A stretch of DNA of 64,000 nucleotides from NCBI GenBank assembly GCA_020832445.1, contig JAFIEO010000029.1, positions 1 to 64,000 on the forward strand, in the 5' to 3' direction. Below the pieces are notes generated by a model. It saw only the letters and a program-made list of their open reading frames with translations. It did not search any database and was not told the DNA's origin. This document shows, one piece after another, positions 10,503 to 54,508 of the stretch (within the stretch, counting starts at the first letter, position 1; each line of letters begins with the position of its first letter). This DNA is from Paracoccaceae bacterium (GTDB taxonomy: Bacteria; Pseudomonadota; Alphaproteobacteria; Rhodobacterales; Rhodobacteraceae). The position numbers and the translations under genes were made by a program.

Positions 10503-10518
10503 GTGTTCGCTAGCGAAC
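10503..10518. promoter_or_regulatory. Palindromic operator candidate, site 1 (crp-like / wecB divergent region)
   Basis: TGTTCGCTAGCGAACA is a perfect 16-bp palindrome in the divergent region between the first Crp/Fnr gene and wecB. It belongs to the TGTnCG-N4-CGnACA family seen five times in this window. A half-site, TGTTCGCTA, starts at 10546, 43 bases downstream, or about four helical turns. It could allow one factor to control both divergent units. Confidence 0.65.
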
Positions 10519-10618
10519 AGATCCGAAGCTCCACGGCACCCTACCGTGTTCGCTATGCCACCGGTAAGGCCAGCGTCCCGCATCGGCGACGCGGCGTCGG
10601 GGCAGTCGCAACAGGGGT

Positions 10619-11749
10619 ATGAAGGGCATGGCGGCGCGTCGGGTGCTCACGGTATTCGGTACACGTCCGGAGGCTATCAAGATGGCCCCGGTGGTGCAGG
10701 CCATGACGCAGTCTCCCGATATCACGTCCTTGCTCTGCGTAACGGGCCAGCATCGGGCGATGCTGGACCAGGTACTGGACTTGTTCCAGCTTACACCCGA
10801 CGTTGATCTGGACATCATGCGCCCCGGTCAGGATCTCACGGATATCACCACCCGTGTCCTCATCGGCTTGCGGGCGGTCATTCGGGAAGTCTGCCCGGAC
10901 ATGGTGCTGGTGCATGGCGACACCACGACCACACTGGCGGGTAGCCTGGCCGCCTACTACGAACAGGTTCCGGTGGGGCACGTGGAGGCCGGGCTTCGTA
11001 CCGGCAACATCTATTCGCCATGGCCGGAGGAAGTCAATCGACGGATTGCCGGCATCGTCGCCAGTCACCATTTCGCACCCACGGAACGGGCGCGAAACAA
11101 TCTGCTGGCCGAGAACGTGTCTGCATGCTGCATTTCCGTTACCGGAAACACGGTGGTCGATGCCTTGCTGGCAACCGTCGAGCGTCTGCGTGGAGACCAG
11201 ACGCTCCAGGCAACGCAGCGTGAGCGTTTTCCCTTTCTGGATGACAAACGGGTGATTCTCGTCACCGGCCACAGGCGGGAAAGCTTTGGCGGGGGCTTCG
11301 AGCGGATCTGTCTGGCGCTGGCCGCATTGGCCGAACGGGAGGATGTTCGCATCGTCTATCCGCTGCACCTCAATCCCAATGTCAAGGGACCGGTGGAAAC
11401 GGCGCTGGGCAGCCTGGAGCGCGTACACCTGATACCACCGCAGGATTACCTCCCGTTCGTCTACCTGATGGATAACGCGACCTTGATCCTGACCGATTCC
11501 GGGGGCGTCCAGGAAGAGGCGCCGTCGCTTGGAAAGCCGGTTCTGGTGCTTCGGGAAATCACGGAACGGCCGGAGGCTGTGGAGGCAGGGACAGTGAAGG
11601 TCGTGGGCACCGATATCGATTGCATCGTCTCCACTGCGGAAACCTTGCTTGACGATGAATCCGCCTATCAGGCCATGGCGAGGGCGCACAACCCGTACGG
11701 GGACGGGCGCGCAGCGCAGCGTATAGTGGAGGTGCTTCGACATGAGTGA
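10619..11749 (+). CDS. wecB: UDP-N-acetylglucosamine 2-epimerase (non-hydrolysing)
   Basis: A 376-residue cytoplasmic enzyme converting UDP-GlcNAc to UDP-ManNAc. The N-terminal signature [14 protein letters not shown] is at residues ~12-25. [25 protein letters not shown] (near 120) and [11 protein letters not shown] (near 290) are all classic for the family, and the length is normal. It overlaps the next gene by eight bases and is paired with it in the pathway to UDP-ManNAcA. The ATG at 10619 follows a weak GGGG; an ATG at 10628 is an equally possible start. The palindromic operator lies ~100 bases upstream. Confidence 0.95.
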
Positions 11750-13001
11750 ACGTCGGCGAATCTGTGTGATGGGCCTGGGTTATATCGGCTTGCCGACTGC
11801 CAGCCTGCTGGCGACCAAGGGGTACGAGGTCCACGGCGTGGATGTGAATCCCGACGTGGTGGAAACCGTCGCCGCCGGTGGTATCCATATCACTGAACCG
11901 GAGCTGGATGTGCTGGTGAAATCGGCGGTTCAGAGCGGGCGCTTGCGGGTTGGTCTGCAGCCGGAGCCTGCGGACGTCTTCATCCTTGCTGTGCCGACCC
12001 CGTTCCAGGAAAACCACAAGCCGGATCTGGGTTGCGTGGAAGCATCAGCCCGGCAGATTGCGTCCCGGTTGGAGCCCGGTAATCTGGTCATACTGGAGTC
12101 CACCAGCCCGCCCGGCACCACAGAGCGCGTGGCGCAATGGCTGGAAGAGGAACGCCCGGATCTCCGATTGCCGCGAGCGAGCCGCTACGCCGTCAGCGAG
12201 GTTGCTTCCGACGTACTGGTGGCGCATTGCCCGGAACGGGTGCTTCCCGGGCATATTCTGAGGGAACTGGTGGGCAACGACCGTATCGTCGGCGGTGTGG
12301 ACGAAGCCTCCACAGAGGCGGCCGCGGAGTTCTACCGTGACTTCGTGTCCGGCACGGTGCATACCACGAACAGCCGGACCGCCGAGCTGGCGAAACTCAC
12401 CGAGAACACCTTCCGCGACGTGAACATCGCCCTGGCGAACGAGCTGTCCCTGATCTGCAATCACCTGGATGTGGATGTGTGGGATCTCATCAAGCTCGCC
12501 AACTATCACCCGCGGGTGAATATCCTGCAGCCGGGGCCTGGTGTGGGCGGCCATTGCCTGGCGGTCGACCCCTGGTTCATCGTGGACAGTGCGCCGGAGC
12601 AGGCCAGATTGATACGCACGGCGCGGGAACTGAACGATGCCAAGCCCGATTTCGTGGTCAAGTGGACCTCCGCCCGGGCCGATCGGCTCAAGGAACCCGT
12701 GATCGCCTGTCTGGGCCTGGCTTACAAACCCGATATCGACGACCTGCGGGAGAGCCCGGCCCTGGATATCACCCGGCGCCTCGCGAGCGATCATGTGGGG
12801 CGGGTCCTGGCCGTGGAACCCAACATCAGGCGTTTGCCGCCGGCGCTGGAAACGCTCGACGTACAACTGGTCCCGGTGGAGGAAGCCTTGCATGAGGCGG
12901 ACATCATCCTTGGCCTGGTGGCGCACAGGCAGTTCAAGCGTATCCCGATGTCACGGCTGCAGGAAAAGATCCTGCTGAACGTCTGCGGACTGTGGAGCTG
13001 A
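11742..13001 (+). CDS. wecC: UDP-N-acetyl-D-mannosamine dehydrogenase
   Basis: A 419-residue member of the UDP-sugar 6-dehydrogenase family that oxidises UDP-ManNAc twice to UDP-ManNAcA. The NAD-binding loop [11 protein letters not shown] is at residues ~10-20. The central region contains [17 protein letters not shown], and the catalytic cysteine is in [13 protein letters not shown] near residue 271. The C-terminal UDP-binding domain includes [16 protein letters not shown]. Pairing with WecB shows that the polymer built here probably contains N-acetylmannosaminuronic acid. The stop lies 33 bases from the convergent glycosyltransferase gene. Confidence 0.95.
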
Positions 13002-13034: not shown

Positions 13035-13787
13035 TTATAGACGCCGTGCCCGTCCGGTGCGTGAGAGAGCATCCTGCAGCACCCTGACGGCGAACAGCGG
13101 CAGGGCGCTCTGGCGGTGGAGACGACTGGGCTGGGTAACGAGTCGATAGAGCCATTCCAGATTCATCCGTCGCATCAGCGCCGGCGCCCGACGGGGGTGC
13201 CCGCAGAGGGCGTCGAACGTGCCGCCGACCCCCTGGCAGACTCTCACCCCGGTCAACACGTCCCGATAGCGAACCATCCACAATTCCTGTCGCGGACTGC
13301 CCAGTCCCACGAACAGCATCCTCGCCCCGGAGGCGTTGATGGCTTCGATCAGCTCCGGCATTCGCTCGGATTCCAGGTAACCATGCTGCGTTCCGGCGAT
13401 TTCCAGGCCCGGGTAACGCTGCTGCAACAACCGCGCCGCCTTGGTGACTATCTCCGGCTTCGCACCGTAGAGGAAAACCGGATGTCGATCTTCCGCGGCA
13501 AGCGCGCAGAGTTCCGGCATCAGCTCTGAACCAGGCACTCGGGCGATATCCCGATGCCCGGCCAGCCTGGCGGCCAGCACGACCCCGATACCGTCCGGTA
13601 TGACCAGATCCGCTTCCCGGAGTGCCCGAGCGAGCTCCGGGTTTCGTCGCGCCGCGACCACTTTCTCCGGGTTGGTCGCGACCACCAGACAGGGCCTGTC
13701 GCCGGCCAGCATCTCGCGAGCGCGGTGCAGGGTGGTGGACATGGTCGCAAGGTCCACCGGCACGCCGAGCACATCGTGGCGCTTCAT
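13035..13787 (-). CDS. WecG/TagA/CpsF-family glycosyltransferase (probable ManNAcA transferase)
   Basis: A 250-residue GT26-family enzyme. Family signatures are NPEKVVAARR, LVIPDGIGVVLAARL (near 70-85), GLGSPRQELWM and GVGGTFDALCG (near 200). WecG adds ManNAcA to undecaprenyl-PP-GlcNAc, and TagA adds ManNAc. With WecB/WecC next door, the ManNAcA activity is the better guess. The ATG at 13787 sits two bases after the preceding stop and has GGAG upstream. In-frame ATGs at 13814 and 13823 are less likely because they overlap the upstream gene. It is the last gene of a three-gene minus-strand operon. Confidence 0.88.
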   Translation of the reverse strand: MKRHDVLGVPVDLATMSTTLHRAREMLAGDRPCLVVATNPEKVVAARRNPELARALREADLVIPDGIGVVLAARLAGHRDIARVPGSELMPELCALAAEDRHPVFLYGAKPEIVTKAARLLQQRYPGLEIAGTQHGYLESERMPELIEAINASGARMLFVGLGSPRQELWMVRYRDVLTGVRVCQGVGGTFDALCGHPRRAPALMRRMNLEWLYRLVTQPSRLHRQSALPLFAVRVLQDALSRTGRARRL

Positions 13788-13789
13788 CT

Positions 13790-15730
13790 TCAGTGCGTCT
13801 CCGCGGTCATCCATTGCAGGCACTCCTCGATTCGTCGCCCCGGAACCTCTATGCCCGGAAGCAGCAGCAGCGTTGTCATGCGGTGCGGCAGCTCACCATG
13901 GTGATACACCCGTACTGTCGTGATCGGGCGGCGCATGGCATATGCCGGCGACTGCCACCCCAGCACGGGAGAGGTCTCACCTCGATGCAGGCTGAGATAG
14001 CCGCCGGTACAGGTCATGGTCGCGTTGCCGCCGGGCAGTCTCAAAGCCAGGGCCCCATTCTGCTGCTGCTCCGCTACCACACCCAGATGCCAGTGCAGCG
14101 CCAGTTCGTGCATGCCGTCGCCGCTGAGCACATCCTGGACCAGCAGCCAACCCTCCGGTGACCAGGCAACGCCGCGGGTATGACTGACGCCACGGGCCTG
14201 GTAGCCGTCGTGCCGAGCCAGTAGCAGTTCGGTGGAGTCCGGTCCGGTGCGATGGCTGAGCAGTTCCGCGCGATAGGGCCTGGACCACAGGAACCCGCTT
14301 TGCTGGAAAGCCTGGTCGGATTCGTCGACGGTGACCGTATTATGCGCCGCCGTGCTCCTGAAATATTTCCGCCAGACCGGGTCCCCCGCGTAGGCAAAGG
14401 TGCCGGTGTCCACCAGTAGCGGAACGTCGCTGACCCACAACAACAGCGAGAGCGCATCCGCGTGGCCGTGGCCATGGGAGGGAGGCATCCCAAGAGGCCC
14501 GTGGTCGAGGATCAAAAGAATGTCCCGCGGGCTGCCCGAGCGGAGGACCGTGTAGCCCGCGTAGGGCAGGGTGGTGACCGAAGCCCGTTTCTGTTCGCGC
14601 CGTCTCGGCTGACACAAGGTCAGCGAGGGGCTCAGCGCTTCGCCGTCGTCGCTGTCCCCGATGGCCGGAAGTTCGCCGGAGGGCAGCGCAAGTTCGTCAA
14701 GGAAATGGGTTCCTCGTTCCACTGCCGCTGTAAGTCGCGGATCGCCTGGGAGTCTCAGGTGTATGAGCAGTTGCTCGGACAAGGCCATCAACTGCAGATT
14801 CGCGTGATGATAGGCAATGGCCTGCTCGGTGCCGCCACCATCCGCAAGCACCTGATGGTCCGCTTCTTCGGCGAGCAGGTTCAGGCCCAGAGAGCGCCAG
14901 CCTGCTGCTTCCGGCAGATCGGTGAATAGCGCACCGGCGTGGATGAGACCCGCCGCCTCCGCGATGGTGTGGTTTCCCAGTGACGAGTACAGAGAGAGTC
15001 GCTGGGCGATGAGTCGCGGGTGCTCCACGGCCATTGCTGCCACCGCCTGACGGGCCGGTGCGTCGTCTGCGAGCCAGGGGCGGATCAGGTCCAGTGCGTA
15101 GCAGGCCGAGATCAGCCTGAGCGCGCATTCCATCGAGGAAATGTAGTGGGGCCCGGCCATGTGCGGATTGCACTCCACCCAGGAAACCAACTGGGTGGCG
15201 ACAAGATCAACCGCTCGCTGGCGAATTCCCCCGGAGCTGGTCGCGGCAATCTGCGCCAGATCCACCAGGTGCTGCAGCCGGGAAGGTTCCCATAGCTCCC
15301 GGACATCCCCGTAGGGATTCCCCTGACGGTAGGGGATGGACCCGAAGAACCAGCCAGGCCAAAGCCTGCCGCTATCGGGAGCGCGTCGCCAGATGTCGGC
15401 GTCCTCGGGGCTCCACCGCCAGTTGCTGCCCGCACGCCGGATGTAGCCATCGAGCAGTGCGGGCGTCATGGTGGCCAGGTTGTTCATGTCCATGGCCAGT
15501 GGCGGCAGAATCGTCCGGCTTCCCCGGCAGAACGCGGGCAACGGCATCGGGCGCCGCGTCGCGGCGATGGACTGGCGATACCGCAGATGAAGCACTGCCA
15601 GCGTCACCGCCTGGGAACCGCGATGCAGCATTTCCGGCGCTGACATCACGCTGAGCCGCCGGTAATACCACAGTGCGCGAGCCCCAAGGTTGGCCGACTG
15701 CTGGGCGCTGACCGTCAACGGGTTGATCAC
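13790..15730 (-). CDS. Heparinase II/III-family polysaccharide lyase
   Basis: A 646-residue protein. It has an N-terminal alpha-helical toroid-like domain (to ~330) and a beta-rich heparinase II/III domain with GMPPSHGHGHADALSLLLW and LLVDTGTFAYAGDP (near 420-455), then TAAHNTVTVDE. These residues match the catalytic region of this uronate lyase superfamily, which cleaves uronic-acid glycosidic bonds by beta-elimination. Members inside exopolysaccharide operons are thought to trim or release the polymer. No signal peptide is evident, though some homologues act in the periplasm. The start is a GTG overlapping the upstream stop (GTGA at 15727-15730). Confidence 0.85.
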   Translation of the reverse strand: MINPLTVSAQQSANLGARALWYYRRLSVMSAPEMLHRGSQAVTLAVLHLRYRQSIAATRRPMPLPAFCRGSRTILPPLAMDMNNLATMTPALLDGYIRRAGSNWRWSPEDADIWRRAPDSGRLWPGWFFGSIPYRQGNPYGDVRELWEPSRLQHLVDLAQIAATSSGGIRQRAVDLVATQLVSWVECNPHMAGPHYISSMECALRLISACYALDLIRPWLADDAPARQAVAAMAVEHPRLIAQRLSLYSSLGNHTIAEAAGLIHAGALFTDLPEAAGWRSLGLNLLAEEADHQVLADGGGTEQAIAYHHANLQLMALSEQLLIHLRLPGDPRLTAAVERGTHFLDELALPSGELPAIGDSDDGEALSPSLTLCQPRRREQKRASVTTLPYAGYTVLRSGSPRDILLILDHGPLGMPPSHGHGHADALSLLLWVSDVPLLVDTGTFAYAGDPVWRKYFRSTAAHNTVTVDESDQAFQQSGFLWSRPYRAELLSHRTGPDSTELLLARHDGYQARGVSHTRGVAWSPEGWLLVQDVLSGDGMHELALHWHLGVVAEQQQNGALALRLPGGNATMTCTGGYLSLHRGETSPVLGWQSPAYAMRRPITTVRVYHHGELPHRMTTLLLLPGIEVPGRRIEECLQWMTAETH

Positions 15731-17352
15731 GTGAAACCTCGCAGCATCAGGATGACCGTGGAAACTGTCACCGCTAACAACAACCATTCCCGCCGATCAC
15801 GCCGTTCCACCAGCAGCAGCTCGCTGCCGTAAAGCAGTATCGGCGCATAGAGCAGGAACAGGGGGTTGAAGGCCAGCGGGCTGCTCCGCACGGCGATGAA
15901 GGTGAGCAACACCAGGATGATCAACAGTACGTCCAGCGCACTGGTCCTGAACTCCTGCCGACGCCGCATGGGCGAATAACGTACGGCAACCAGCGCCATG
16001 ACACCGATGGCGCACATGCCCATGATTTCCGTGATTTGCGCCACCTGGCTGACGAACGGCGGGTTGTCCGTGTAGAGATAGAGCACCGCCGCCACCGTCA
16101 TGAATACCGGAACCCGGTTCATGAACGAGGGCGGGGTTCCACTGCGCACCATACGCAGCAGCAACAGCGCGAACGAGGCCGCTGCAAGCATCCCGAAATC
16201 TCTGGGCACGTGAGTGGCGAGCGCGGCGAATGTCACCAGCGTCAGGGGCACCATGATCTCCAGAGCCACTCGTGGAACCCACACCAGCAAGGGGCGGACT
16301 GTCCTTTCCTCCTTGACTTCGGATACGTTCTGGACGGATTTCATCCGATGCTCGTAGGCCTGCTCAGCGAGAGTCAGGAAGCCGTAGATCAGGGACAGAT
16401 GCAGCCCGTAAGCGAGGAGGACTTTCCATGGTTCCGATGAGAACAGCGCAACACCGAAGAACACGAATGAGGCCTGGAGCAGATAGATCGCGATCACCGA
16501 CTGGGAATGCGTGAACCCAAGGGCAAGCAGCCGGTGGTGGATGTGGGTCTTGTCCGGGCGGAACGGATGCAGGCCCCGCAATACCCGCCGTATGCTGACG
16601 ACTGCGAGATCCGCCGGCGGAAGGCCGACCAGCAGCAGCAGTGCCCACGGTGACATCCCGACCCCTTGGGTGTGCACCAGTGCCAGCCCGAGGAAGCCCA
16701 CCGCGAAGCCGAGAAACTGGCTGCCCGCATCGCCCATGAAGATGGTGGCCGGATGTGTGTTGTAGCGTAGAAACCCGGCGAGCCCGCCGATGGCGGCCGC
16801 GCTGACCAACAGCACATCCGAGCGCTCGAACACGAATGCCAGGTACGACATGCCCAGCAGGCTGAGCAGGGTGATGCCGGCTGCAAGCCCGTCCAGCCCG
16901 TCCGATGTGTTGGATGAATTGATACAGACAGCCAGCCCCAGGACGGTCAACGGCAGGGCAAGAGCCAGCGGCAGTGCGAACTCCCCGAACAAGGGGATGG
17001 TGTGCATCGAAAAGCCGGCATAGATCACCACCGGCGTGGCTGCCGTCAACTGTATGGCGAGCTTGACCAGCGCGGGGAGGTTTCCATGATCATCCAGCGC
17101 ACCACCCAGGAGCAGGATCGCTGCGCCGATCACGAACGCAATGGGGAGCGGGGCAACGGGGAGCCAAAGCAGCACGGCGGTCATGGCGCCGAGGGTAATG
17201 CCCCATCCTCCCACCCTGGGAATGGGGCGCATGTGCACCTTTCGAGGCCCTGGCTGATCGAGCATGCGCAGGACCGGCGCCAGACGAATCATGATCGGCG
17301 TCAGGGCGAGGCTCACGGCCAGAGCTGTAATCGTGGCGAAAAGCGACTGCAT
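15727..17352 (-). CDS. WecA/MraY-family undecaprenyl-phosphate sugar-1-phosphate transferase with extra membrane domain
   Basis: A 541-residue integral membrane enzyme. The first ~330 residues are a complete GT4/WecA-type core: DDHGNLPALVKLAIQ, NSSNTSDGLDGLAAG, MGDAGSQFLGF and RPDKTHIHHRLL. These mark the Asp-rich Mg/prenyl-phosphate site and the HIHH nucleotide-sugar loop. It should put GlcNAc-1-P or a similar sugar on undecaprenyl phosphate to start the repeat unit. About 210 further residues form five to seven more hydrophobic segments that WecA (about 370 residues) does not have. The ATG at 17352 is chosen as the start of the first membrane helix. Confidence 0.88.
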   Translation of the reverse strand: MQSLFATITALAVSLALTPIMIRLAPVLRMLDQPGPRKVHMRPIPRVGGWGITLGAMTAVLLWLPVAPLPIAFVIGAAILLLGGALDDHGNLPALVKLAIQLTAATPVVIYAGFSMHTIPLFGEFALPLALALPLTVLGLAVCINSSNTSDGLDGLAAGITLLSLLGMSYLAFVFERSDVLLVSAAAIGGLAGFLRYNTHPATIFMGDAGSQFLGFAVGFLGLALVHTQGVGMSPWALLLLVGLPPADLAVVSIRRVLRGLHPFRPDKTHIHHRLLALGFTHSQSVIAIYLLQASFVFFGVALFSSEPWKVLLAYGLHLSLIYGFLTLAEQAYEHRMKSVQNVSEVKEERTVRPLLVWVPRVALEIMVPLTLVTFAALATHVPRDFGMLAAASFALLLLRMVRSGTPPSFMNRVPVFMTVAAVLYLYTDNPPFVSQVAQITEIMGMCAIGVMALVAVRYSPMRRRQEFRTSALDVLLIILVLLTFIAVRSSPLAFNPLFLLYAPILLYGSELLLVERRDRREWLLLAVTVSTVILMLRGFT

Positions 17353-17495
17353 TGAGCTTTCGCCCCCCGGAATAACGGACTCGCATGGCAGCCAGGGAGC
17401 GAGCGCCGGGTGCAAATTGTTATGCCCAGGCAATGCCCCAAGAAAACCTGGCTGGGCCTGCCAAAGCACTGTAGAAGGCGCGTGGCTGCAGCATC

Positions 17496-17511
17496 TGTGC
17501 GGTAACGTACA
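17496..17511. promoter_or_regulatory. Palindromic operator candidate, site 4 (between two exopolysaccharide operons)
   Basis: TGTGCGGTAACGTACA matches TGTnCG-N4-CGnACA and shares 14 of 16 bases with the site at 41270. It lies 144 bases upstream of the WecA-like gene on the minus strand and 125 bases upstream of the export operon on the plus strand. It is well placed to control both. Confidence 0.55.
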
Positions 17512-17636
17512 GACCCTCCCGGACCCCCTCCGTAGGCTCGTTTGTCATAGGGAACGGTTTGCCGGCAAGCAGAGACATTCTTCGCGCAGCGGCGAGTTCC
17601 GCCGTTTAGAAGCCAGCAAACAGGGAGGCAAAAAAA

Positions 17637-18092
17637 ATGGCGAACCCAGGGTGCGTTACTGCTATTGCCCGCTGTTTACGTGGCACGGCGGTGTTTCTGC
17701 CCCTGCTGTTGGCAGGCCTGGGGCATACCTCCCTCGCTGCCACCGTCACGGGATCTCCCCAGGCGTCGGCGGAACCAGTCCAGAAACTTGACTCGGCGCT
17801 TGCAGAGCCGCTCCCGTATTTCGTGATTGACGCCATTCCGCAAAAGGCCGTTCTCCAGAACCTGGCGGCCGGTGCTGCCAGACAGCGGGGTGATGAACGC
17901 GAGAAGCCCCTGGCTGTTCGGCAAAGCCAGCAACACAACCCGGGAAACAGACCGGATCAGGGTGTGGAACAGCAAACGGGGGCTCCCGAATCGGGGGGAG
18001 TGCAGGATATCGTCGTAGCCATCATGTTCGGCCTCGCGGCGCTGATTCTTGTTACCCGGCGCCGAATTACCTCCCCCACCCCAGATTCCTAG
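17637..18092 (+). CDS. Secreted protein with C-terminal sorting-tag-like end
   Basis: A 151-residue protein of unknown function that opens the export operon. It has a signal peptide (residues ~10-35, GTAVFLPLLLAGLGHTSLAA) and a low-complexity hydrophilic middle rich in Q, N, P and E. It ends with a single hydrophobic helix followed by an arginine cluster (IVVAIMFGLAALILVTRRR). This three-part end resembles PEP-CTERM and related exosortase tags, but no Pro-Glu-Pro precedes the helix and no exosortase gene is visible. It could instead be a simple C-terminally anchored envelope protein. GGGAGG precedes the start. Confidence 0.62.
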   Translation: MANPGCVTAIARCLRGTAVFLPLLLAGLGHTSLAATVTGSPQASAEPVQKLDSALAEPLPYFVIDAIPQKAVLQNLAAGAARQRGDEREKPLAVRQSQQHNPGNRPDQGVEQQTGAPESGGVQDIVVAIMFGLAALILVTRRRITSPTPDS

Positions 18093-18129
18093 CTTCCCAT
18101 CCCGCGCCACGAGCTGAGCAGGAGCGAAC

Positions 18130-20086: not shown

Positions 20087-20133
20087 GCCAGTTCGGGCAG
20101 GGCGTGGGGCTTCGTAAGGGCAGGGAGTGAACC

Positions 20134-22650: not shown

Positions 22651-22692
22651 GCGTTTTTATTCTTTTCGTCAGCTGCCCGGCGCAACGGTCAT

Positions 22693-39121: not shown

Positions 39122-39129
39122 CATCGGCC

Positions 39130-43100: not shown

Positions 43101-43101
<1 letters not shown>
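41377..43101 (+). CDS. GlpD-like FAD-dependent glycerol-3-phosphate dehydrogenase family protein
   Basis: A 574-residue flavoprotein. The FAD-binding motif AVIGGGIYGACIARDAA is near residues 16-32. The GlpD-type signature SHSLKIIHGGFRYLQ is near 54-68, and VNACGPYAM closes the FAD domain. The C-terminal DAO domain is present, so it is full length. Classical GlpD oxidises glycerol-3-phosphate at the membrane in glycerol use. Here it heads a glycan operon without GlpK or GlpF, so it may act on a glycerol-phosphate or related precursor. The ATG at 41377 with AGGG upstream is preferred over a TTG at 41338. Confidence 0.82.
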
Positions 43102-44065
<964 letters not shown>

Positions 44066-44069
<4 letters not shown>

Positions 44070-45112: not shown

Positions 45113-45181
45113 ACCGGCCATGAGGGATTGGAGCCAGTAGCCGACGGACGCCAGAAAACAACAGAGGGACGACATGCAGGC

Positions 45182-46525: not shown

Positions 46526-47745
46526 GCGGCGCAGCCAGCCTGAGGGTGCAAACCGGCGCTGAGGTCTCGCGCAGGCTTGGCCGCGTGGTGTCACTGGCTG
46601 GGAAACGAATCCCCCTGTACCGCCAATTCTGGGCAGAGCAGGGCATGGAACCCGCCTCGATCGCCATCCGCGAGTTGTCGGATTTCATCCAGTTTCCGAT
46701 CATCGACCGCACGGTGCTCGCGCAGACTCCGCTCGAGCAACGACGGGATCCGCGCTGGCCGTGGCGTCTGATCCACACCGAACGTTCCGGCGGGTCCACC
46801 GGCGCACCACTGGAGGTTCCCGTTGATCCGGTCAGTCACACGCGGCGGCAGTTGCGCTTTCTGCGCGCACTGGTCCAGTGCGGCTACATCCCCGGGGACC
46901 GGTTCCTGATGCTGAGCACCCGGCCCACAGGCCGGCATCCCATGCTGCCCGGCTGCTTCTGCGCCGATATCCGTTCATCCCAGCAGACGCTGCTCCGGCT
47001 GTACCAGCAGTTCCGGCCGCGCCTGCTGTACGGCCCGCTGAACACGCTGCTGTTGCTCGGGCAGGCTTTGGATCAGGAGGAGGCCAATGCCATCCACCGT
47101 CCCCAGATCGTGGTTTCCACAGCGGAACAAATGGCACCGGGTGATCGCCTGCGGCTTCGCGAGGTGTTTGGTGTTGATCCCGCTGACTTCTATGGCATGA
47201 GTGAATGCGGACTGATTGCCTGGCGACCGCCGGAATCCAGCAGCTACCGCCTTGCCGACCGGGACCTGTTCCTCGAGTTCCTGCCTCTTGCGGAGGACAG
47301 CTCACTGGAGCGGCTGGTCATTACTGATCAGCATGCGGCCGTGTGCATGCCGCTGATACGTTTCGACACCGGTGACCTGGTGCAACGGGAAATGGATCTG
47401 ATCAATGCACCCGTGGTGGGTTTCAGGGGGCGGGTAGTGGATTGCCTCTGGCGCCGCGACCGCAGCGCCGTCTCGCCCTACAGGGTGACGCTGGCGCTGG
47501 AGGACGCTGTGGATGTGTTGCGTTACCAGGTGATACAACGGCGCGATCTTAGTCTGGACGTCAGTCTGTGGGTCAAGGATGAGCTGCCCCAGCAGGCGGT
47601 TCAGCGCGTCGAAACCGACCTTCTCCGCCTGATGGGCGAGGGCGTCGTCGTGAGAGTAAAACAAGGGAGCCCCAATGCTGCGGCGGGGCTGCGCAAATTC
47701 CGACCGGTCCGGTCGGAGGCGGGGGAGGAGCCATGCGCATACTGA
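46522..47745 (+). CDS. CapK-like adenylate-forming enzyme (phenylacetate-CoA ligase family)
   Basis: A 407-residue member of the ANL superfamily. The phosphate-binding loop reads RSGGSTGAPLEVP near residues 89-101. FYGMSECGLIAW near 225-236 and RFDTGDLVQRE near 280-290 are the acid-activation motifs. CapK-type proteins occur in capsule loci, where they may activate an organic acid or amino acid that decorates the glycan. The presence of three FemAB/GNAT-type acyltransferases downstream fits such a decoration. It overlaps the pyruvyl transferase gene by four bases and the next GT4 by thirteen. Confidence 0.78.
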   Translation: MSGAASLRVQTGAEVSRRLGRVVSLAGKRIPLYRQFWAEQGMEPASIAIRELSDFIQFPIIDRTVLAQTPLEQRRDPRWPWRLIHTERSGGSTGAPLEVPVDPVSHTRRQLRFLRALVQCGYIPGDRFLMLSTRPTGRHPMLPGCFCADIRSSQQTLLRLYQQFRPRLLYGPLNTLLLLGQALDQEEANAIHRPQIVVSTAEQMAPGDRLRLREVFGVDPADFYGMSECGLIAWRPPESSSYRLADRDLFLEFLPLAEDSSLERLVITDQHAAVCMPLIRFDTGDLVQREMDLINAPVVGFRGRVVDCLWRRDRSAVSPYRVTLALEDAVDVLRYQVIQRRDLSLDVSLWVKDELPQQAVQRVETDLLRLMGEGVVVRVKQGSPNAAAGLRKFRPVRSEAGEEPCAY

Positions 47746-48869
47746 CGCTTTGCTACGAGTACCCACCAGTGGGAGGCGGAGGGGGGGTGATGGCCGCTGC
47801 GCTGGCGCGCCAGTTGACACGGATGGGGCATGAAATCGAAGTCGTCACCTCCCGCTTCGGCCAGCAGCCGAGGCGGGAGGAGCAGGGCGCCGTGGTGATA
47901 CACCGCCACGACTGTCGTCGCCGACATCAGCACTACACCACGGCCACGGAACTACTCTCCACGCTACGGCCGGCCTATCGGACGGCGGCGGCCATCGTCC
48001 GCGACAATCCGCCTCACCTGCTGCATGCCCATTTCGCCTTGCCCACAGGCCTGGTGGCGGAACAACTGTCCAGGAAGTTCGGCATTCCCTATGTTCTGAC
48101 GGTTCACGGCTCTGACATTCCCGGCTACAACCCGGACCGCTTCCGATGGCACCACAGGATGATCAATCCGCTCTGGAAGCGGGTGATGGTGGGCGCCAGC
48201 GAGGTTGTCTCGCCGTCGAAATTCCTGGCGTCCCTGGTGCGCCGCCAGATAAACCTTCCAATGCAGATCATCCCGAACGGCTATTCCCGGGAGCCTCCGG
48301 GCAGTGAGTCATCCAAACGGCCGCTCGTGCTCGTCGTCTCCCGGCTCTTCCCCCGCAAGGGGGTACAGCATTTCCTGGAGGCCATCCGCGAACTGGATTG
48401 TGACTGGGAATTCGTGATTGCCGGCGACGGCCCCTACATGCCGGAGTTGCGCGCACTGGCTGCCACCGTCAGGCCCAACGTGCGCTTCACCGGCTTCATC
48501 GATCAAACGGCTTTGCATCAGCTTTATGAGCAGGCACGCATCCTGGTCTTCCCGTCGATCAAGGAAAACTTCCCCATGGTGCTGCTGGAGGGCATGAGCG
48601 CGGGCTGTGCGGTGATCACCACAGACGCGGATGGCTGTGCCGAAGTGGTCTCCGACGCCGGCCTGGTCGTGCCCGCTGGAAGCCCTGCGTCCCTGAAAGC
48701 AGCCTTGCTTGCGCTGATCAACGACCCCGCTCGTTGTGACGACCTGTCCCAACGAGCGCGTGTACGCGCGGAGCAGTTTCGCTGGCCCCATATCGCTTCG
48801 CTGTACCTGGAAGCGTTTCATGGCGCCATGCGATGGCGCCCCGGAGGCGCGCCCGCGGGAAGTATCTAG
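47733..48869 (+). CDS. GT4-family glycosyltransferase
   Basis: A 378-residue GT-B glycosyltransferase. The N-terminal loop is YEYPPVGGGGGVMAAALARQ. The donor domain contains VSRLFPRKGVQHFLEA, and PSIKENFPMVLLEGMSAGCAVI near 275-295 has the E-x7-E motif. The ATG follows GGAGGAGCC, a strong ribosome binding site, inside the end of the CapK-like gene. The sugar donor is unknown. Confidence 0.88.
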   Translation: MRILTLCYEYPPVGGGGGVMAAALARQLTRMGHEIEVVTSRFGQQPRREEQGAVVIHRHDCRRRHQHYTTATELLSTLRPAYRTAAAIVRDNPPHLLHAHFALPTGLVAEQLSRKFGIPYVLTVHGSDIPGYNPDRFRWHHRMINPLWKRVMVGASEVVSPSKFLASLVRRQINLPMQIIPNGYSREPPGSESSKRPLVLVVSRLFPRKGVQHFLEAIRELDCDWEFVIAGDGPYMPELRALAATVRPNVRFTGFIDQTALHQLYEQARILVFPSIKENFPMVLLEGMSAGCAVITTDADGCAEVVSDAGLVVPAGSPASLKAALLALINDPARCDDLSQRARVRAEQFRWPHIASLYLEAFHGAMRWRPGGAPAGSI

Positions 48870-48871
48870 CC

Positions 48872-49897
48872 GTGGCACTGATACCGGATCGGCTGCAAAC
48901 CCTGCCAGCCCGGCTCGCGCCTCTGCTCGGGCCGCGAAGCTTCTCGGTCATCCGCCTTAGCGGAACCGTGCACGATGGAAGCTCGGACCTCACGGCACTG
49001 TACCTGGGCAACGGGACCAACCGGGAATGGTTGCAGCGCCAGTTCTTTCGGCAGGCGACGGGGGAGGAACTCTGCAGGCCGTTCATCCCGTCACTCCCAA
49101 CCTCGGCGCTTGCCCGGGACTGGGCCGGGGCGGATCTCCAACTCACGGATCTGCCCCCGGTCTGGAGCAGGCTCTGCGGTGCCCAGCCAGCCCTGCGCAT
49201 CCCCGCATGGATTCGCCAGCAGATGGCCCTGCCGCCGCTAACGGCGAACCGGGCCTGGCCCATCCCGCGTCCGGCAGCGAAGGAGGTGGAACGCCTGATA
49301 CGCCGTCACGACTATTCCTTTGCACTGACCCGGGACGCAGCGGCAATACGGCATTTCTTTCATGCCTACTACGAACCGTACGTTCGTGCGCGTTACGGAA
49401 CGGGGGCGATGGTCGTATCCCTTAAGCGGTTCATGCGCGAGTCCCAAGGCGGAGAGCTCGCGCAGTTGCGGGCCGGGCGCGAAATGGTGGCCGGCATGAT
49501 GCTCTTCCGACGGGCAGACCGGCTACGGCTGGGCTGGTTCGGCTGCCGCGCGGGCGCAAGGCCGCCGAATGGCGCCAGCGAGGTGCTGGATGCGCTGGTG
49601 CTCCGGCATGCCTGGCTGGACGGTGTGCGCCAGGTCAGCTTCGGAAGCTCCCGGCCATGTCTGGCTGATGGTGCCTTCCGCTACAAGCGCAGGCTCGGCG
49701 CCAGCCCGGTTCCCGCCCGCTTTCCCCAGGCGGTGCTGGGTATCGGGTTCCCGGCACGCCATCCCGCAGTGCTGGAGTGCCTCCGCCGGCGTCCCATGAT
49801 CGGCACCGTGGAGGGGCAGCTTCGGGCCTACCGAGTGCGCGCGGAAACAGGAACCGGAGACTGGGTGTCACTGGAAAACATCGGCCATGGCGATTGA
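48872..49897 (+). CDS. FemAB/GNAT-related acyltransferase-like protein
   Basis: A 341-residue protein of uncertain function. The C-terminal half contains VRQVSFGSSRPCLADGAFRYKRRLGASPV (about 260-290), the pattern seen at the end of FemAB/GNAT folds in glycan loci. An earlier segment (~155-250) with FFHAYYEPYVRARYG fits the same fold. The N-terminal ~150 residues are not recognised. The GTG at 48872 directly after the previous stop is chosen; an ATG at 48833 would overlap that gene by 37 bases. It is the first of three such genes. Confidence 0.6.
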   Translation: MALIPDRLQTLPARLAPLLGPRSFSVIRLSGTVHDGSSDLTALYLGNGTNREWLQRQFFRQATGEELCRPFIPSLPTSALARDWAGADLQLTDLPPVWSRLCGAQPALRIPAWIRQQMALPPLTANRAWPIPRPAAKEVERLIRRHDYSFALTRDAAAIRHFFHAYYEPYVRARYGTGAMVVSLKRFMRESQGGELAQLRAGREMVAGMMLFRRADRLRLGWFGCRAGARPPNGASEVLDALVLRHAWLDGVRQVSFGSSRPCLADGAFRYKRRLGASPVPARFPQAVLGIGFPARHPAVLECLRRRPMIGTVEGQLRAYRVRAETGTGDWVSLENIGHGD

Positions 49898-51464
49898 AGA
49901 GAGTACCTTGCCCGTTCGCCAGAGAGGATGGCTGCGGAACGTCGCCACCAGCTACGGCGACATTGCGGTTGGCGGGCTCGTATATATCCTGCTGACGCCC
50001 TTTGTCATCCATCATCTCGGCCTGGAGGCGTATGCCATCTGGGTCGTCAGCCACACCATTACGTTCTACCTGGGGCTGTTCGACCTGGGTTTCAGCCAGG
50101 CGCATGTCCGCTTCCATGCCCGACATGCGGCACGGCGTCGCCTCGCCCTGATGCGCCGCTTGGCGGCCACCGTGTTCCTTGCACTGGCGTGCGCCGGGGC
50201 GGTCGCCATGCTTCTGGCCCTCGGGCTGGTGCTAATGCCTATCGAACACTGGTTCCAGGTGTCCGCCGGCATGCAGGCGGATTTCCGACTGGTCGTTCTC
50301 GTTCTTGGGGTGAACCTGCTGTTCGCCCTACCAGGATCTACGCTGGAGAACATCTACGAGGGCGAACAGCGCTTCGATATCCGGAATCTGCGCTCCATCG
50401 TCCTCCGGGTTCTCACCGTCGCCCTGCAGGTGGGGCTGCTGGTGAACGGTTACGGGATCGTTGCGCTCGCGCTGGTTGAACTGGCGGTAACCCTGCTACG
50501 CATCGCCATCGACCTGGTAGTCACCGCACGACTGGTGCCCGGGCTGCTGCGCACACGACTGCGTTTCGACCGTGCCACCTGGCGGCGCATCAGGCCCTTC
50601 GCACTATGGGCGTTTGTCGACGACTTGCTGGTGGAGGGCACCGCCCATATCGACAAGCTGCTGGTGGCGCTGCTGTTGCCACTGGCGCTGCTGACGCCGT
50701 ACGCGCTTTGTGTTGCCGTCGCCGGCCTGTTGATGCTGGCGGCGCAGCCTATGACCGAGACCTTCTTCCCCATGGCCTCGGCATTCCACGCCCGCGGCCG
50801 GCGGGCGGACATGGTCAGGCTGTTGCTGAGCGGCACCAAGATCAGTCTGGTCGTGAGCGCGCCGCTGCTTATCCTCCTGCTGTTCCACGGCGAGGGACTG
50901 ATGCTGATCTGGGTGCCGGAGCTGGAAGGATATTTGCCCCCCGGACTGTTACAGCTCATCCTGCTCAATTTCTACCTGTCCGTCGGCTTCTGGACCGCAA
51001 CCCTGATCCTGATGGCAGCGAACCGCATACGTTTTGTCGCTCTGCTGACAATCACGGAGCTGCTGCTCGCGCTGGTCCTGATCCTGCTGCTCGTTCCCTG
51101 GCTTGGCTTGAACGGCCTGGCGCTCGGAGCGCTGGTCGCCAACGCACTGATCGGCATGTTCTGGCTGTTGCCGACGGCATGCCGCCACTGCGGCACGAGC
51201 ATGGCCGCGTTTGCCGCCTCGGCAGTGGGGCGCCCCTTGCTGATCTCGATTCCGGTCCTGGCGGTGGTGGGCACGCTCCAACTCGTGTTCACGGGCGGCG
51301 ACTGGGCACTGCTCACCGGATCTTCGGTGCTGATTGGGCTGCTGTACGTTCCCGGCCTGCTGTTGTTCGGGCTGGACGGCTGGGAGCGTGCCAGCCTATA
51401 CGCGTGGCTCCGCCGTTTGCGTCACCCCGGGAGTCCGCGGCTATCGGAGGCGGGCAAGACATGA
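49887..51464 (+). CDS. Wzx-type polysaccharide/lipid-linked oligosaccharide flippase (MOP superfamily)
   Basis: A 525-residue membrane protein with about twelve to fourteen hydrophobic helices. It begins LPVRQRGWLRNVATSYGDIAVGGLVYILLTPFVIHHLG, with the early helix and loop of the polysaccharide_synt family. LLVALLLPLALLTPYALCVAVAGL and the C-terminal helix series agree with this. It should move a lipid-linked glycan to the periplasmic face. This locus therefore has its own flippase, separate from the ABC exporter at 25987. It overlaps both neighbours (11 and 4 bases). Confidence 0.83.
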   Translation: MAIEESTLPVRQRGWLRNVATSYGDIAVGGLVYILLTPFVIHHLGLEAYAIWVVSHTITFYLGLFDLGFSQAHVRFHARHAARRRLALMRRLAATVFLALACAGAVAMLLALGLVLMPIEHWFQVSAGMQADFRLVVLVLGVNLLFALPGSTLENIYEGEQRFDIRNLRSIVLRVLTVALQVGLLVNGYGIVALALVELAVTLLRIAIDLVVTARLVPGLLRTRLRFDRATWRRIRPFALWAFVDDLLVEGTAHIDKLLVALLLPLALLTPYALCVAVAGLLMLAAQPMTETFFPMASAFHARGRRADMVRLLLSGTKISLVVSAPLLILLLFHGEGLMLIWVPELEGYLPPGLLQLILLNFYLSVGFWTATLILMAANRIRFVALLTITELLLALVLILLLVPWLGLNGLALGALVANALIGMFWLLPTACRHCGTSMAAFAASAVGRPLLISIPVLAVVGTLQLVFTGGDWALLTGSSVLIGLLYVPGLLLFGLDGWERASLYAWLRRLRHPGSPRLSEAGKT

Positions 51465-53266
51465 ACAAGGCCTACCGACTGAACTGGTTGAGGGCGGGCG
51501 ATGCCCGGCAGGTCGCCCGGCTGGAGGCGAAGGTCTATCCCCGCAGCTACCGGAGTGGTGTACGGGCGTTGCGGGAACAATTGCACTATGCCGAGGCGGC
51601 GGGGGAGAACCTGTCCGTCGGCCTGTTTCTCGGCAACAGGCTGGTTGGCTATTGCCTGCTCTTCGCGGAGGAGCATCGTCAGAAGATCTGCGCCTATCTC
51701 GATATTTCCCCACCGCCCGGCCTGGAACTGGACGGCCCCGGCCTGTACCTGGCAGACCTGGCGGTACACCCCGCTCACCGCTCGCGGAGTTGGGCACTGG
51801 TCTCGCGGCTGGCCTGCGTTCTGGAGAGCAGGGACGACCTGCGTAGCCTTCCCATGGAAGCACTGAGCACGCCCGACATGCTGCGCTTCTGGAAATCCCG
51901 TCGGCGAGTACTGGCCAGCCTGGGCTTTGTACTGGAGCGAACGGTGGAGTTCCAGGAGGATGATGTGCCTTTCCCGCTACACTGGCTCCAGTTCGCGCAA
52001 CGCCGCACGCCGCGTACAGGTGGCAAACGCCGGGGCGACAACGCCGGGCTGGACGACGCCGTCACGGTACAGAGCGACCGGGGAGCGTTTCGCGTCGGCG
52101 TCGTCAGAACGGATCAGGGCTGGAGCGGCCTTTCGGAGGACTGGGACAGGCTCTGTGCGGACACGCCGGGAGCCACAGTATTCTGCAGCTTCCCCTATCT
52201 GCGGGCGTGGTGGCGACAACTGGGATTGAACAGCGAACTGCGGTTGGTGGTGGTCCAGCAGGCGATCAGCGGTGAAATCCAGACCATCGCGCCCATGCAG
52301 GTACTGTTGAATCCCACCTCCAGTCCACACCGCCGCTGCCTCAGCTTTATCGGCCAGCCATCCGAAGTGGACAGGCCAACCCTGCTGACCCGGGGGGCGG
52401 ATCCGCTCTGTGCAAGGCTGATTGCCGACTACCTGATGCGCAGTTACGGCGAGGACTGGGACAGCATGATCCTGTACGAGCAGCAGCCGGACAGTCCGTT
52501 CCTGGCACTTATGCAGGAACGGCTCGGTGACGCCGGCCTGCTGGTGGATGCCCCCGCTGGCCCGGATTGCCCCAGGGTGGACGTCAGTGGCTCCTGGGAA
52601 CATTACCTGGCATCGCGGAGCCGCTCCCAGCGAAAGAGCCTGAAACGCCATATCGCGAAGGTGAAGGAGGCTGGAACCATGGAGCTGGATACCGTCGACG
52701 AGCCGTTATGTCAAAGCGAGGGGCTGCGGCGGTACCTGGAAGTGGAGGGGCGTAGCTGGAAGGCCGGTAGTTCGGTCAGCGTGGCACGGTCCTCTGCCCA
52801 CCTCGGGTTTCTGCACGCCTTGATGTCTGAGCAAGAGCGCGGTGAGCAGCCGCAACTGCATTTTCGGTTTCTTAGGATCGATGGTCAGGATATTGCTGCA
52901 ACCATCGGACTTTATTGGAAATCATGCCTGTACGCATTGCACGTCGCCCACGACAGCGCATTCGATGCGCTGTCCCCGGGCTTCGTGCTCACAGCGCTGG
53001 AACTGGAAGAAGCCTTCCAGCGGGATGACTACAGTGCGGTGGATTACCTGGGTGGATTCATGAGCAACAAGCGAGGCTGGGCCACGGAACTCAGAACCAC
53101 GCGCGCCTTGTTCGCGCAACCGCCAAACCTGCCCGGTTATCGCTACCATCTCTACCATTTCCGCTGCAAACCCTGGGTCAAGCGGCAACTGGCGAAACGG
53201 CAGCTGCTGGAGCCCGTGCTGCGCTGGAAAAAGGCGCTGGGGCGACGTGAAGGGGGGTTGGCGTGA
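51461..53266 (+). CDS. GNAT + FemAB/BcsL-type two-domain acyltransferase
   Basis: A 601-residue fusion. Residues ~1-175 form a GNAT-like domain (RLVGYCLLFAEEHRQKICAYL, then LYLADLAVHPAHRSRSWAL as the acetyl-CoA-binding strand and loop). Residues ~195-600 form a BcsL/CelD-type FemAB domain with SRSQRKSLKRHIAKVKEAG near 386-404. It has LDALSPGFVLTALELEEAF near 465 and VDYLGGFMSNKRGWATEL near 510. The start at 51461 overlaps the flippase stop (ATGA). Neither acyl donor nor acceptor is known. Duplicate acyltransferase domains suggest acylation or aminoacylation of the glycan. Confidence 0.78.
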   Translation: MNKAYRLNWLRAGDARQVARLEAKVYPRSYRSGVRALREQLHYAEAAGENLSVGLFLGNRLVGYCLLFAEEHRQKICAYLDISPPPGLELDGPGLYLADLAVHPAHRSRSWALVSRLACVLESRDDLRSLPMEALSTPDMLRFWKSRRRVLASLGFVLERTVEFQEDDVPFPLHWLQFAQRRTPRTGGKRRGDNAGLDDAVTVQSDRGAFRVGVVRTDQGWSGLSEDWDRLCADTPGATVFCSFPYLRAWWRQLGLNSELRLVVVQQAISGEIQTIAPMQVLLNPTSSPHRRCLSFIGQPSEVDRPTLLTRGADPLCARLIADYLMRSYGEDWDSMILYEQQPDSPFLALMQERLGDAGLLVDAPAGPDCPRVDVSGSWEHYLASRSRSQRKSLKRHIAKVKEAGTMELDTVDEPLCQSEGLRRYLEVEGRSWKAGSSVSVARSSAHLGFLHALMSEQERGEQPQLHFRFLRIDGQDIAATIGLYWKSCLYALHVAHDSAFDALSPGFVLTALELEEAFQRDDYSAVDYLGGFMSNKRGWATELRTTRALFAQPPNLPGYRYHLYHFRCKPWVKRQLAKRQLLEPVLRWKKALGRREGGLA

Positions 53267-54420
53267 ATCATGCCTACCGCGTCACCCTGATAAAGGACTT
53301 TGCCGAAGCCCGGCGCCTTGCCGCTGTCTGGGATGCACTGTACGAACGGACGACCGGCGCCACCCCATGGCAAAGCTGGCACTGGTTCGAGGCCTGGTGG
53401 ACCAGCATGCGCGGCGATGCGGCATTATGCCTGGTGCTGGTGGAAGACGAGACCGATGGTTCCCCGGTGCTGTTGCTCCCGCTTCAGCGCCGCATTGACC
53501 GGATGCTGGGGCTGCCTGTTCGTATACTTGAGCCGCTGGGGATGCCGGATGAGATCAACAGGCCCAGGCTGGCGCTCGGCGAGTGCTCGCCGGCAGCCCT
53601 GTTCGCCGCACTGGCGGCTTTGCAAGACAAGGGCTCTGCCACCCGGGGGCCGGGCTGGGACATGCTGCGCCTGGATGAAGTCACGACCGAGGACTGGGCA
53701 ACAGAGCCCCTGAAAGCCTTCAGCCGCCGCCGGAATCTTGGTTTGCACTGCGTCACCCAGCATCCGTGTCCCTATCTGGACCTGCGTCAGGACTGGGACA
53801 CTTTCCTTGCAGGCCGTGGCAAAAAGCTGGCGAAGAATCTACGTGCGGCCGCCAGGCGCCTGGAAACAAGCGGGCCGTTGGCTCTGCAGGTGGCGCAGAC
53901 CCCAGCGGAGATCGATGAGGGCTTCACGACGCTGCTCTCCATTCACGAATGCAGTTGGAAACAGCAGGCCGGCATCGGGTTTGCGCGGGGCGAAGGCTAT
54001 GCGGCGTATTACCGGCGCTTCCTCTCCGCAATGGCGGTGCAGGGCAGGGCTCGACTGCTGGTGTTGAAAGCGGGCGAGGTAGCGGTGGCCGCCGCGATCG
54101 GCGTAACGGACGGGCGGGATTACTATGGAGCACAGATCGTCCATGATTCCCGCTATGATCAGTGCTCCCCGGGAACCCTGCTGGAAGCCATGGAACTGGA
54201 AGCGCTGATGCGGGAACAGCGCTTCCGTTACTACGATTTCTTCGGTGCCGCCTTGAACAACAAGCGGCGCTGGACCGACACCTGCCGCAATACCGAGCGA
54301 TGGCTGCTAATCCGCGCCACGCCGGTGACACAGCTGATTCGTGCCTACTACTTTGCCTTCAAGCCCTCAGTGCAACGTCTGCGCCCCTATCTGGGCCTGA
54401 CCAGGCCCCGCGCTTCGTGA
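53263..54420 (+). CDS. FemAB/BcsL (CelD-like) acyltransferase-family protein
   Basis: A 385-residue protein of the BcsL/CelD GNAT-related family. GATPWQSWHWFEAWW near 27-41 and FLAGRGKKLAKNLRAAARRLE near 183-203 are the usual opening and core. RYYDFFGAALNNKRRWTDTCRNTERWLL near 320-347 corresponds to the C-terminal half of a FemAB fold. It resembles the second domain of the preceding protein, suggesting an old duplication. The start is a GTG overlapping the upstream stop. It ends the plus-strand operon that began at 41377. Confidence 0.8.
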   Translation: MNHAYRVTLIKDFAEARRLAAVWDALYERTTGATPWQSWHWFEAWWTSMRGDAALCLVLVEDETDGSPVLLLPLQRRIDRMLGLPVRILEPLGMPDEINRPRLALGECSPAALFAALAALQDKGSATRGPGWDMLRLDEVTTEDWATEPLKAFSRRRNLGLHCVTQHPCPYLDLRQDWDTFLAGRGKKLAKNLRAAARRLETSGPLALQVAQTPAEIDEGFTTLLSIHECSWKQQAGIGFARGEGYAAYYRRFLSAMAVQGRARLLVLKAGEVAVAAAIGVTDGRDYYGAQIVHDSRYDQCSPGTLLEAMELEALMREQRFRYYDFFGAALNNKRRWTDTCRNTERWLLIRATPVTQLIRAYYFAFKPSVQRLRPYLGLTRPRAS

Positions 54421-54492
54421 TGATCCGCAACGCCCGTTCAACCTGATTTTCAAGATCAGCACTATAACTTACGTAGCAGAACATCCCGGCTA

Positions 54493-54508
54493 TGTGCGCA
54501 ACCGCACA
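54493..54508. promoter_or_regulatory. Palindromic operator candidate, site 5 (upstream of second Crp/Fnr gene)
   Basis: TGTGCGCAACCGCACA has perfect 6-bp arms (TGTGCG/CGCACA) and fits TGTnCG-N4-CGnACA. It lies 120 bases before the start of the second Crp/Fnr-family gene, suggesting autoregulation or cross-regulation. Confidence 0.55.

What the first reader, a model, noticed from the sequence alone, without database searches (positions are those of the whole stretch)
10503..54508. A 16-bp palindrome family marks the promoters of the glycan loci and both Crp/Fnr genes
Five sites match TGTnCG-N4-CGnACA: 10503 (perfect), 39106 (same arms, new centre), 41270, 17496 and 54493 (perfect arms). All five lie between genes, upstream of starts: the divergent crp-like/wecB region, the hydrolase-GT4 operon, the epimerase/GlpD-like divergent region, the WecA-like/export divergent region, and the second Crp/Fnr gene. 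Ten fixed bases would be expected by chance well under once in 64 kb (64000/4^10, about 0.06). This suggests a dedicated regulon for exopolysaccharide and glycolipid synthesis.
Basis: partly seen in the sequence, partly recalled or inferred. Interest (0 to 1): 0.8.

Follow-up and report, generated by a model that had tools for sequence, protein, structure and literature searches.

The report
Likely Crp-type operators before glycan operons
Six copies of one DNA palindrome lie before the operons of a bacterial exopolysaccharide gene cluster and before two uncharacterised Crp/Fnr-type regulator genes, and their fixed spacing to a start-up signal of transcription suggests that such regulators switch the cluster on.

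Summary
Confirmed and extended. Exactly five TGTNCG-N4-CGNACA sites lie in the window (0.07 expected); the first is at 10504, not 10503. Relatives show a 20-bp motif, TNTGTNCG-N4-CGNACANA; the assembly has five, all in the window. A sixth, asymmetric site (10455-10470) precedes the first Crp/Fnr gene. In 45 loci chosen only by homology to that protein the 16-mer occurs 47 times in 717 kb (shuffles 0.97), often before Crp/Fnr paralogues. In relatives a -10-like TANNNT lies exactly 21 nt beyond the palindrome in 31 of 158 directions (about 1.2 expected), which puts the site at -41.5, the class II activator position. In the window all six directions facing glycan operons have TANNNT at 21 or 22 nt; the two facing the regulators do not. 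Best reading: a Crp/Fnr pair of an uncharacterised subfamily activates this exopolysaccharide/glycan cluster. The downstream genes I could name in relatives are largely envelope and stress types, so the site is not dedicated to glycans. Caution: the contig is probably chimeric (24-G join near 135.6 kb), so the whole-assembly test mostly measured another organism. Binding, ligand and expression are untested.

The parts
10502..10521 (.). Site A, 20 bp, between crp1 and wecB
   Evidence: matrix score 23.7, best in window
10455..10470 (-).
   Evidence: score 17.1; same variant before crp1-type genes of relatives, conserved as DNA
17494..17513 (.). Site C, divergent WecA-like / export operon region
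   Evidence: score 22.4
39104..39123 (.). Site D, upstream of the 277-aa protein / GT4 operon
   Evidence: score 17.2
41268..41287 (.). Site E, divergent epimerase / GlpD-like region
   Evidence: score 22.9
54491..54510 (.). Site F, upstream of crp2
   Evidence: score 20.8; site also upstream of crp2-type genes of relatives
10542..10547 (+). -10-like TACCGT for wecB, 22 nt beyond site A
17533..17538 (+). -10-like TAGGCT for the export operon, 21 nt beyond site C
17468..17473 (-). -10-like TACAGT for the WecA-like operon, 22 nt beyond site C
39079..39084 (-). -10-like TATGAT, 21 nt beyond site D
41243..41248 (-). -10-like TACTGT for the epimerase operon, 21 nt beyond site E
41308..41313 (+). 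-10-like TAAGCT for the GlpD-like operon, 22 nt beyond site E
9608..10336 (-). crp1: Crp/Fnr regulator, recognition helix LGVRRVGITKAA; I move its start from 10471 to 10336 because site B overlaps the start of the longer ORF (inference)
   Evidence: Pfam HTH_Crp_2; non-coding conservation of site B
54628..55389 (+). crp2: paralogous Crp/Fnr regulator, recognition helix LGVRREGVTEAA
   Evidence: Pfam HTH_Crp_2 and cNMP_binding; AlphaFold and Foldseek, CRP fold
10619..13001 (+). proposed target: UDP-GlcNAc 2-epimerase and UDP-sugar dehydrogenase
13035..17352 (-). proposed target: WecA-like GT4, heparinase II/III-like, WecG/TagA-type transferase
17637..32237 (+). proposed target: polysaccharide export, chain length, tyrosine autokinase, Wzy-like, ABC transporter, glycosyltransferases, sulfotransferase
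37009..39045 (-). proposed target: 277-aa protein without family match, GT4 glycosyltransferase
39130..41160 (-). proposed target: NAD epimerase and LPG_synthase_TM protein
41377..54420 (+). proposed target: GlpD-like oxidoreductase, glycosyltransferases, pyruvyl transferase, Polysacc_synt_3 and acetyltransferase-type genes

Best explanation
The six palindromes are binding sites of a Crp/Fnr dimer of an uncharacterised subfamily, made by crp2 (54628-55389), crp1 (9608-10336) or both. Shown by sequence: the motif accompanies this regulator subfamily in Beta- and Gammaproteobacteria, lies upstream of many of the regulator genes themselves, and sits at a fixed distance from a -10-like hexamer. 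Inferred: at the glycan promoters the dimer occupies -41.5 in place of a -35 element and activates RNA polymerase, as at class II Crp/Fnr promoters; one site between divergent operons serves both. At the regulators' own promoters the spacing differs, so those sites may be autoregulatory, perhaps repressive. The signal is unknown. Cysteines 150, 227 and 229 and histidine 154, invariant among the 18 regulators aligned, suggest a metal or redox signal, but this is a guess.
For: Five sites against 0.07 expected. 47 sites in 717 kb around regulator homologues against shuffle mean 0.97, maximum 3 of 30 shuffles, reversed control 0; 29 of 45 loci have one. A site with at most one mismatch within 350 nt upstream, window genes left out: 41 of 63 crp2-type (20 exact) and 25 of 54 crp1-type genes (1 exact); reversed-sequence control 2 of 63 and 0 of 54 (which mends two wrongly cut rows). 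Matrix trained on relatives ranks the six window sites first with a clear gap. 20-mer in 23 of 34 genomes with a strong homologue against 24 of 229 without, genomes of other classes of the phylum, Fisher p 2e-12. TANNNT at exactly 21 nt in 31 of 158 directions, binomial p 1.5e-34; 22 of 110 in loci picked by homology alone; 25 of 142 after collapsing similar flanks. Window: TANNNT at 21 or 22 nt in 7 of 10 directions, background 0.015 per position. CRP fold.
Against: No binding or expression data. 16 of 45 homologue loci have no exact site. In the assembly's own class the 20-mer is not associated with the homologue: 6 of 35 genomes with, 11 of 73 without (my count). Genome-wide the 16-mer excess is weak: 295 against 178 control in 40 genomes with the homologue, 139 against 98 in 40 without. 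29 loci around WecA-like homologues hold no site, so the glycan targets are not shown to be conserved. The matrix also scores 19.7 once in 120 kb of other contigs and 14.0 in the rest of C18, so a single high score is not proof. The two regulator-facing directions lack TANNNT at 21 or 22, while 54493 minus, which faces no gene, has it.
Confidence: 0.85

Rival explanations
1. The sites are NifA-type upstream sequences (TGT-N10-ACA) serving sigma-54 promoters; a gene that looks like a sigma-54 activator, by eye, lies at 4473-6401.
For: The arms fit TGT-N10-ACA, given as the NifA consensus in PMC4999443 (passages read). The window holds 11 such matches.
Against: No match to my -24/-12 pattern within 300 nt of any of the six sites. 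The inner CG/CG, the flanking T/A and the -10 at 21 nt are not NifA features (recalled), and the loci were found through Crp/Fnr genes, not NifA.
Confidence: 0.03
2. The sites are bound by another regulator that also controls both Crp/Fnr genes.
For: Co-occurrence does not prove which protein binds. Seven other HTH_Crp_2 matches over the cut-off exist in the assembly, none tested.
Against: Loci were chosen only by homology to crp1, and the site recurs upstream of crp1- and crp2-type genes. Size and symmetry fit a Crp/Fnr dimer, and -41.5 is a Crp/Fnr class II position (recalled).
Confidence: 0.08
3. Only crp2-type proteins bind the symmetric site; crp1 is a target with its own asymmetric variant, or acts as an antagonist. 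(A finer version of the best explanation, so the odds overlap.)
For: crp2-type genes of relatives carry exact sites in 20 of 63 cases, crp1-type in 1 of 54, the latter mostly with the C-C-A variant. The helix position after RR is Glu in nearly all crp2 types, Val or Ala in nearly all crp1 types.
Against: Both share the rest of the helix LGVRRxG[VI]T, so both may bind the same site.
Confidence: 0.45
4. The palindromes are hairpins, terminators or repeat debris rather than operators.
For: They are inverted repeats in intergenic DNA; one terminator-like match abuts site D.
Against: Only scattered bases are fixed, the core varies, and position is locked to a -10-like element.
Confidence: 0.01

Closest known systems
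E. coli CRP at class II promoters
   Same: Same fold; 16-bp TGT...ACA frame and dimer symmetry; class II centre at -41.5 (recalled).
   Different: Site is TNTGTNCG-N4-CGNACANA, not TGTGA-N6-TCACA. No evidence for cAMP.
Bcam1349 (CRP/FNR) of Burkholderia cenocepacia
   Same: A Crp/Fnr protein reported to activate an exopolysaccharide cluster (PMC3584217, start of abstract and passages).
   Different: It responds to c-di-GMP; the passages seen give no binding consensus. Its sequence was not compared here.
CgrA of Rhodospirillum centenum
   Same: Crp-type regulator; its regulon table lists phasin and entericidin genes (PMC4681086, passages), gene types also near sites here (phasin by eye; entericidin).
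   Different: Its motif is TGTGA-N6-TCACA, stated there to be identical to that of CRP.
NifA upstream sequence
   Same: TGT-N10-ACA arms (PMC4999443, passages).
   Different: Works with sigma-54; no -24/-12 match here.
FNR/FixK
   Same: Superfamily and fold.
   Different: Motif TTGANCNNGATCAANG for FnrN/FixK in PMC4999443; the FNR N-terminal cysteine cluster (recalled) is not seen in crp1 or crp2 by eye.

Membership tests
Crp/Fnr superfamily | HTH_Crp_2 domain | tested here: met
   crp1 55 bits, crp2 50.9 bits, cut-off 27
Crp/Fnr superfamily | cNMP-binding-like effector domain | tested here: met
   crp2 32.1 bits over cut-off 27.5; crp1 25.6, just under it; CRP-like model of crp2
CRP (cAMP receptor) | TGTGA-N6-TCACA site | tested here: not met
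   inner bases in this frame are N-C-G, not G-A-N (the pattern used for training fixed C-G, but crp2 upstream sites found with up to one mismatch keep it)
CRP (cAMP receptor) | cAMP binding | not testable with these tools
   no ligand assay; canonical phosphate cassette (recalled) not evident by eye
FNR | N-terminal Fe-S cysteine cluster | tested here: not met
   not present by eye in the aligned N-termini (cluster recalled)
Class II activator promoters | operator centred at -41.5, 29.5 bp before the -10 hexamer | tested here: met
   single sharp peak at 21 nt in relatives; 21 or 22 nt in window; transcription starts not mapped
NifA/sigma-54 | -24/-12 promoter downstream | tested here: not met
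   no pattern match within 300 nt of six sites

The most novel reading that the evidence does not exclude
A widespread pair of Crp/Fnr paralogues in Beta- and Gammaproteobacteria forms an unrecognised envelope-stress activator circuit with its own 20-bp class II operator and a cysteine/histidine-based sensor, acting much as RpoS or EcfG do elsewhere; in the window's organism the circuit has been turned to switch on a whole exopolysaccharide cluster.
Probability: 0.35. Interest if true: 0.78.

Novelty: new variant of a known kind. Interest (0 to 1): 0.62.

Why it matters
Crp/Fnr proteins of this subfamily are common (150 of 398 phylum genomes match crp1 at E up to 0.001) and carry only a family name in the plasmid records seen. 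This gives them a predicted binding site, a promoter geometry and a testable list of targets, and links them to exopolysaccharide control. Several of the source organisms named (Accumulibacter, Thiobacillus, Sedimenticola, Denitromonas) are known from flocs, sulfur cycling or sediments (recalled), where matrix production matters.

Tried and rejected
Genome-wide count of the 16-mer as a test of the regulator: too much background, replaced by the 20-mer. The split at E < 1e-30 and the restriction to genomes outside the assembly's own class were my choices, made; the 26 same-family and 108 same-class genomes were left out of the Fisher test, and the same-class ones show no association. Conservation of the glycan promoters through WecA-like homologues: best relative only 36% identical, 0 sites in 29 loci. 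NifA/sigma-54 reading: rejected. Sigma-70 consensus scan of 38900-41500 found nothing, as expected if class II promoters lack a good -35. The -10 test was prompted by conserved columns and by eye, so the window's 21-or-22 rule is partly after the fact; the relatives' single peak at 21 is the stronger evidence. Of the 79 sites in that test, 24 come from loci fetched because they hold the motif; they give 9 of the 31 hits. In one search two crp2-type rows (L167, L113) were cut wrongly because the gene lies at the locus end; one search drops them. Those two entries were also among the 65 that trained the matrix; I did not retrain it. Variovorax plasmid pair (L282): no exact site. Cysteine distances in the model could not be measured.

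Literature: ten searches listed no paper that I recognised as giving this motif. One search searched its letters; the 11 papers it listed look unrelated by title and none was opened. Only passages of PMC4681086, PMC4999443 and PMC3584217 were read. The library is open-access only, so this is weak evidence of absence.
Full report
Observation. The five 16-mers are present and are the only exact matches in the window; the first starts at 10504, not 10503. Dinucleotide shuffles give 0.07 on average. In the assembly there are eight; the three outside the window lie in long ORFs and the reversed control gives seven, so outside the window the count is background. In the 148 other genomes drawn from the same family the motif is at control level: 503 matches against 543 for the control.

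The contig. Tetranucleotide composition shows that contig C18 from 1 to about 135.6 kb, which includes the whole window, differs from the rest of the contig and from six other contigs (mean correlation with those contigs 0.64-0.79 against 0.93-0.97). The change falls at a run of 24 G (L096:15601-15624) inside a truncated oxidoreductase-like ORF. The simplest reading is a chimeric join; a real island is not excluded. Either way 'the rest of the genome' is a poor test of this regulon. The closest relatives of crp1 come from records whose names I place in Beta- and Gammaproteobacteria, with one Streptomyces among the 45 (up to 65% identity). In the assembly's own family only 3 of the 148 other genomes hold a strong homologue (E < 1e-40).

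Relatives. 48 loci were fetched by homology to crp1 alone; 45 were used, three fragmentary matches (L186, L188, L189) being left out. They hold 47 exact 16-mers in 717 kb; 30 shuffles give a mean of 0.97 and a maximum of 3, the reversed control 0; 29 of 45 loci have at least one. Two paralogue types appear. With the window's genes left out, crp2-type genes (helix LGVRREGVT) have a site with at most one mismatch within 350 nt upstream of the conserved core in 41 of 63 cases (20 exact) and crp1-type genes (LGVRRVGVT) in 25 of 54 (1 exact); the reversed-sequence control gives 2 of 63 and 0 of 54 (correcting). At crp1-type genes the usual form is an asymmetric variant ending C-C-A. Of 52 crp1-type genes examined, 21 (window included) match TGTNCG-N4-CGNNCA exactly; these fall in mixed reading frames and 12 of 21 have stops between site and core, so the block is conserved as DNA. 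In the window this variant is 10455-10470 and overlaps the ORF start at 10471, so crp1 probably starts at 10336.

Motif. Aligning 56 sites of relatives shows T in 85% of half-sites two bases outside TGT. It also scores 14.0 in the rest of C18 and 19.7 once in 120 kb of other contigs. The 20-mer occurs five times in the assembly, all in the window, control 0. Among 263 genomes of the phylum sample outside the assembly's class, 23 of 34 with a strong crp1 homologue have it (36 sites, control 8) against 24 of 229 without (28 sites, control 32); Fisher p 2e-12, entered by hand from the tables. Within the class there is no association (6 of 35 against 11 of 73, my count).

Promoter geometry. In 79 distinct sites of relatives (158 directions), TANNNT starts exactly 21 nt beyond the palindrome in 31 directions; background 0.0073 per position, p 1.5e-34. 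In loci picked by homology alone it is 22 of 110 directions; with similar flanks collapsed 25 of 142. Two decoy palindromes (5 sites each) show none there, while a looser form of the motif shows 55 in 123 sites. Sites not next to a regulator gene give 23 of 104 directions; those facing a regulator give 4 of 27 at 21 nt and 4 at 22. 21 nt beyond the site means 29.5 bp from its centre, which is -41.5 if the hexamer begins at -12: the class II position of CRP and FNR (recalled). In the window 7 of 10 directions have TANNNT at 21 or 22 nt. These include all six that face glycan operons: 10504 plus, 17496 both, 39106 minus, 41270 both. The seventh, 54493 minus, faces no gene. The two facing crp1 and crp2 lack it. 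Predicted leaders of about 27 to 110 nt follow (my arithmetic).

Targets. In the window: UDP-GlcNAc 2-epimerase and UDP-sugar dehydrogenase; WecA-like, heparinase-like and WecG-type genes; export, chain length, autokinase, Wzy-like, ABC transporter, glycosyltransferase and sulfotransferase genes; a GT4 operon; epimerase and LPG_synthase_TM; a GlpD-like oxidoreductase with glycosyltransferases and pyruvyl transferase. In relatives, genes just downstream of sites include CsbD, BON, DUF3309, DUF5670, entericidin, OmpA, LemA, FecR, an FMN reductase, CFA synthase, DPBB (RlpA-like), glycine zipper, MlaE, PAS/GGDEF and PAS kinases and one GT4/WecA-like gene; Ysc84 scores just under its cut-off. These 20 proteins were picked from the lists, not drawn at random, and many sites have no downstream gene that I could name. 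A glucan-synthase-like reading of L293 is by eye only and had no Pfam match.

Proteins. crp2 models as a CRP fold (mean pLDDT 83.7, 18 sequences; high-ranking PDB chains include M. tuberculosis CRP, GlxR, NtcA and FNR). Cysteines 150, 227 and 229 and histidine 154 (crp2 numbering) are invariant in the 18 aligned regulators; window crp1 was not in that alignment but has matching residues by eye. Three homologues from the assembly's own family, which lack the site, lack the cysteines. Which paralogue binds, what it senses, and whether it activates are inferences to be tested.

Noticed in passing
L096:15601-15624 (contig C18 near 135.6 kb): A run of 24 G joins two compositionally different parts of the contig inside a truncated oxidoreductase-like ORF: probable chimeric assembly, so the window is likely not from the organism the assembly is filed under.
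   Followed up: yes
window 54628-55389 and 9608-10336: Regulators of this type share Cys150, His154, Cys227 and Cys229 (crp2 numbering), a possible metal or redox sensor.
   Followed up: partly
L142:8845, L147:9135, L149:8319, L163:8371 and others: A second form of the site, with the half next to the promoter reading CAGACA, recurs at class II spacing in relatives.
   Followed up: partly
window 31344-33076: Two sulfotransferase-like genes in the glycan cluster suggest a sulfated polysaccharide.
   Followed up: no
window 20134-22650: Chain-length and tyrosine-kinase genes resemble the XrtA/PEP-CTERM system models but fall under their cut-offs.
   Followed up: no
window 498-3875: Genes that look like a PQQ/quinoprotein dehydrogenase accessory set, by eye only.
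   Followed up: no
L298 and L299, position 2001: Two genomes of the assembly's class carry a 20-mer just beyond the end of a regulator match, before a small ORF.
   Followed up: no
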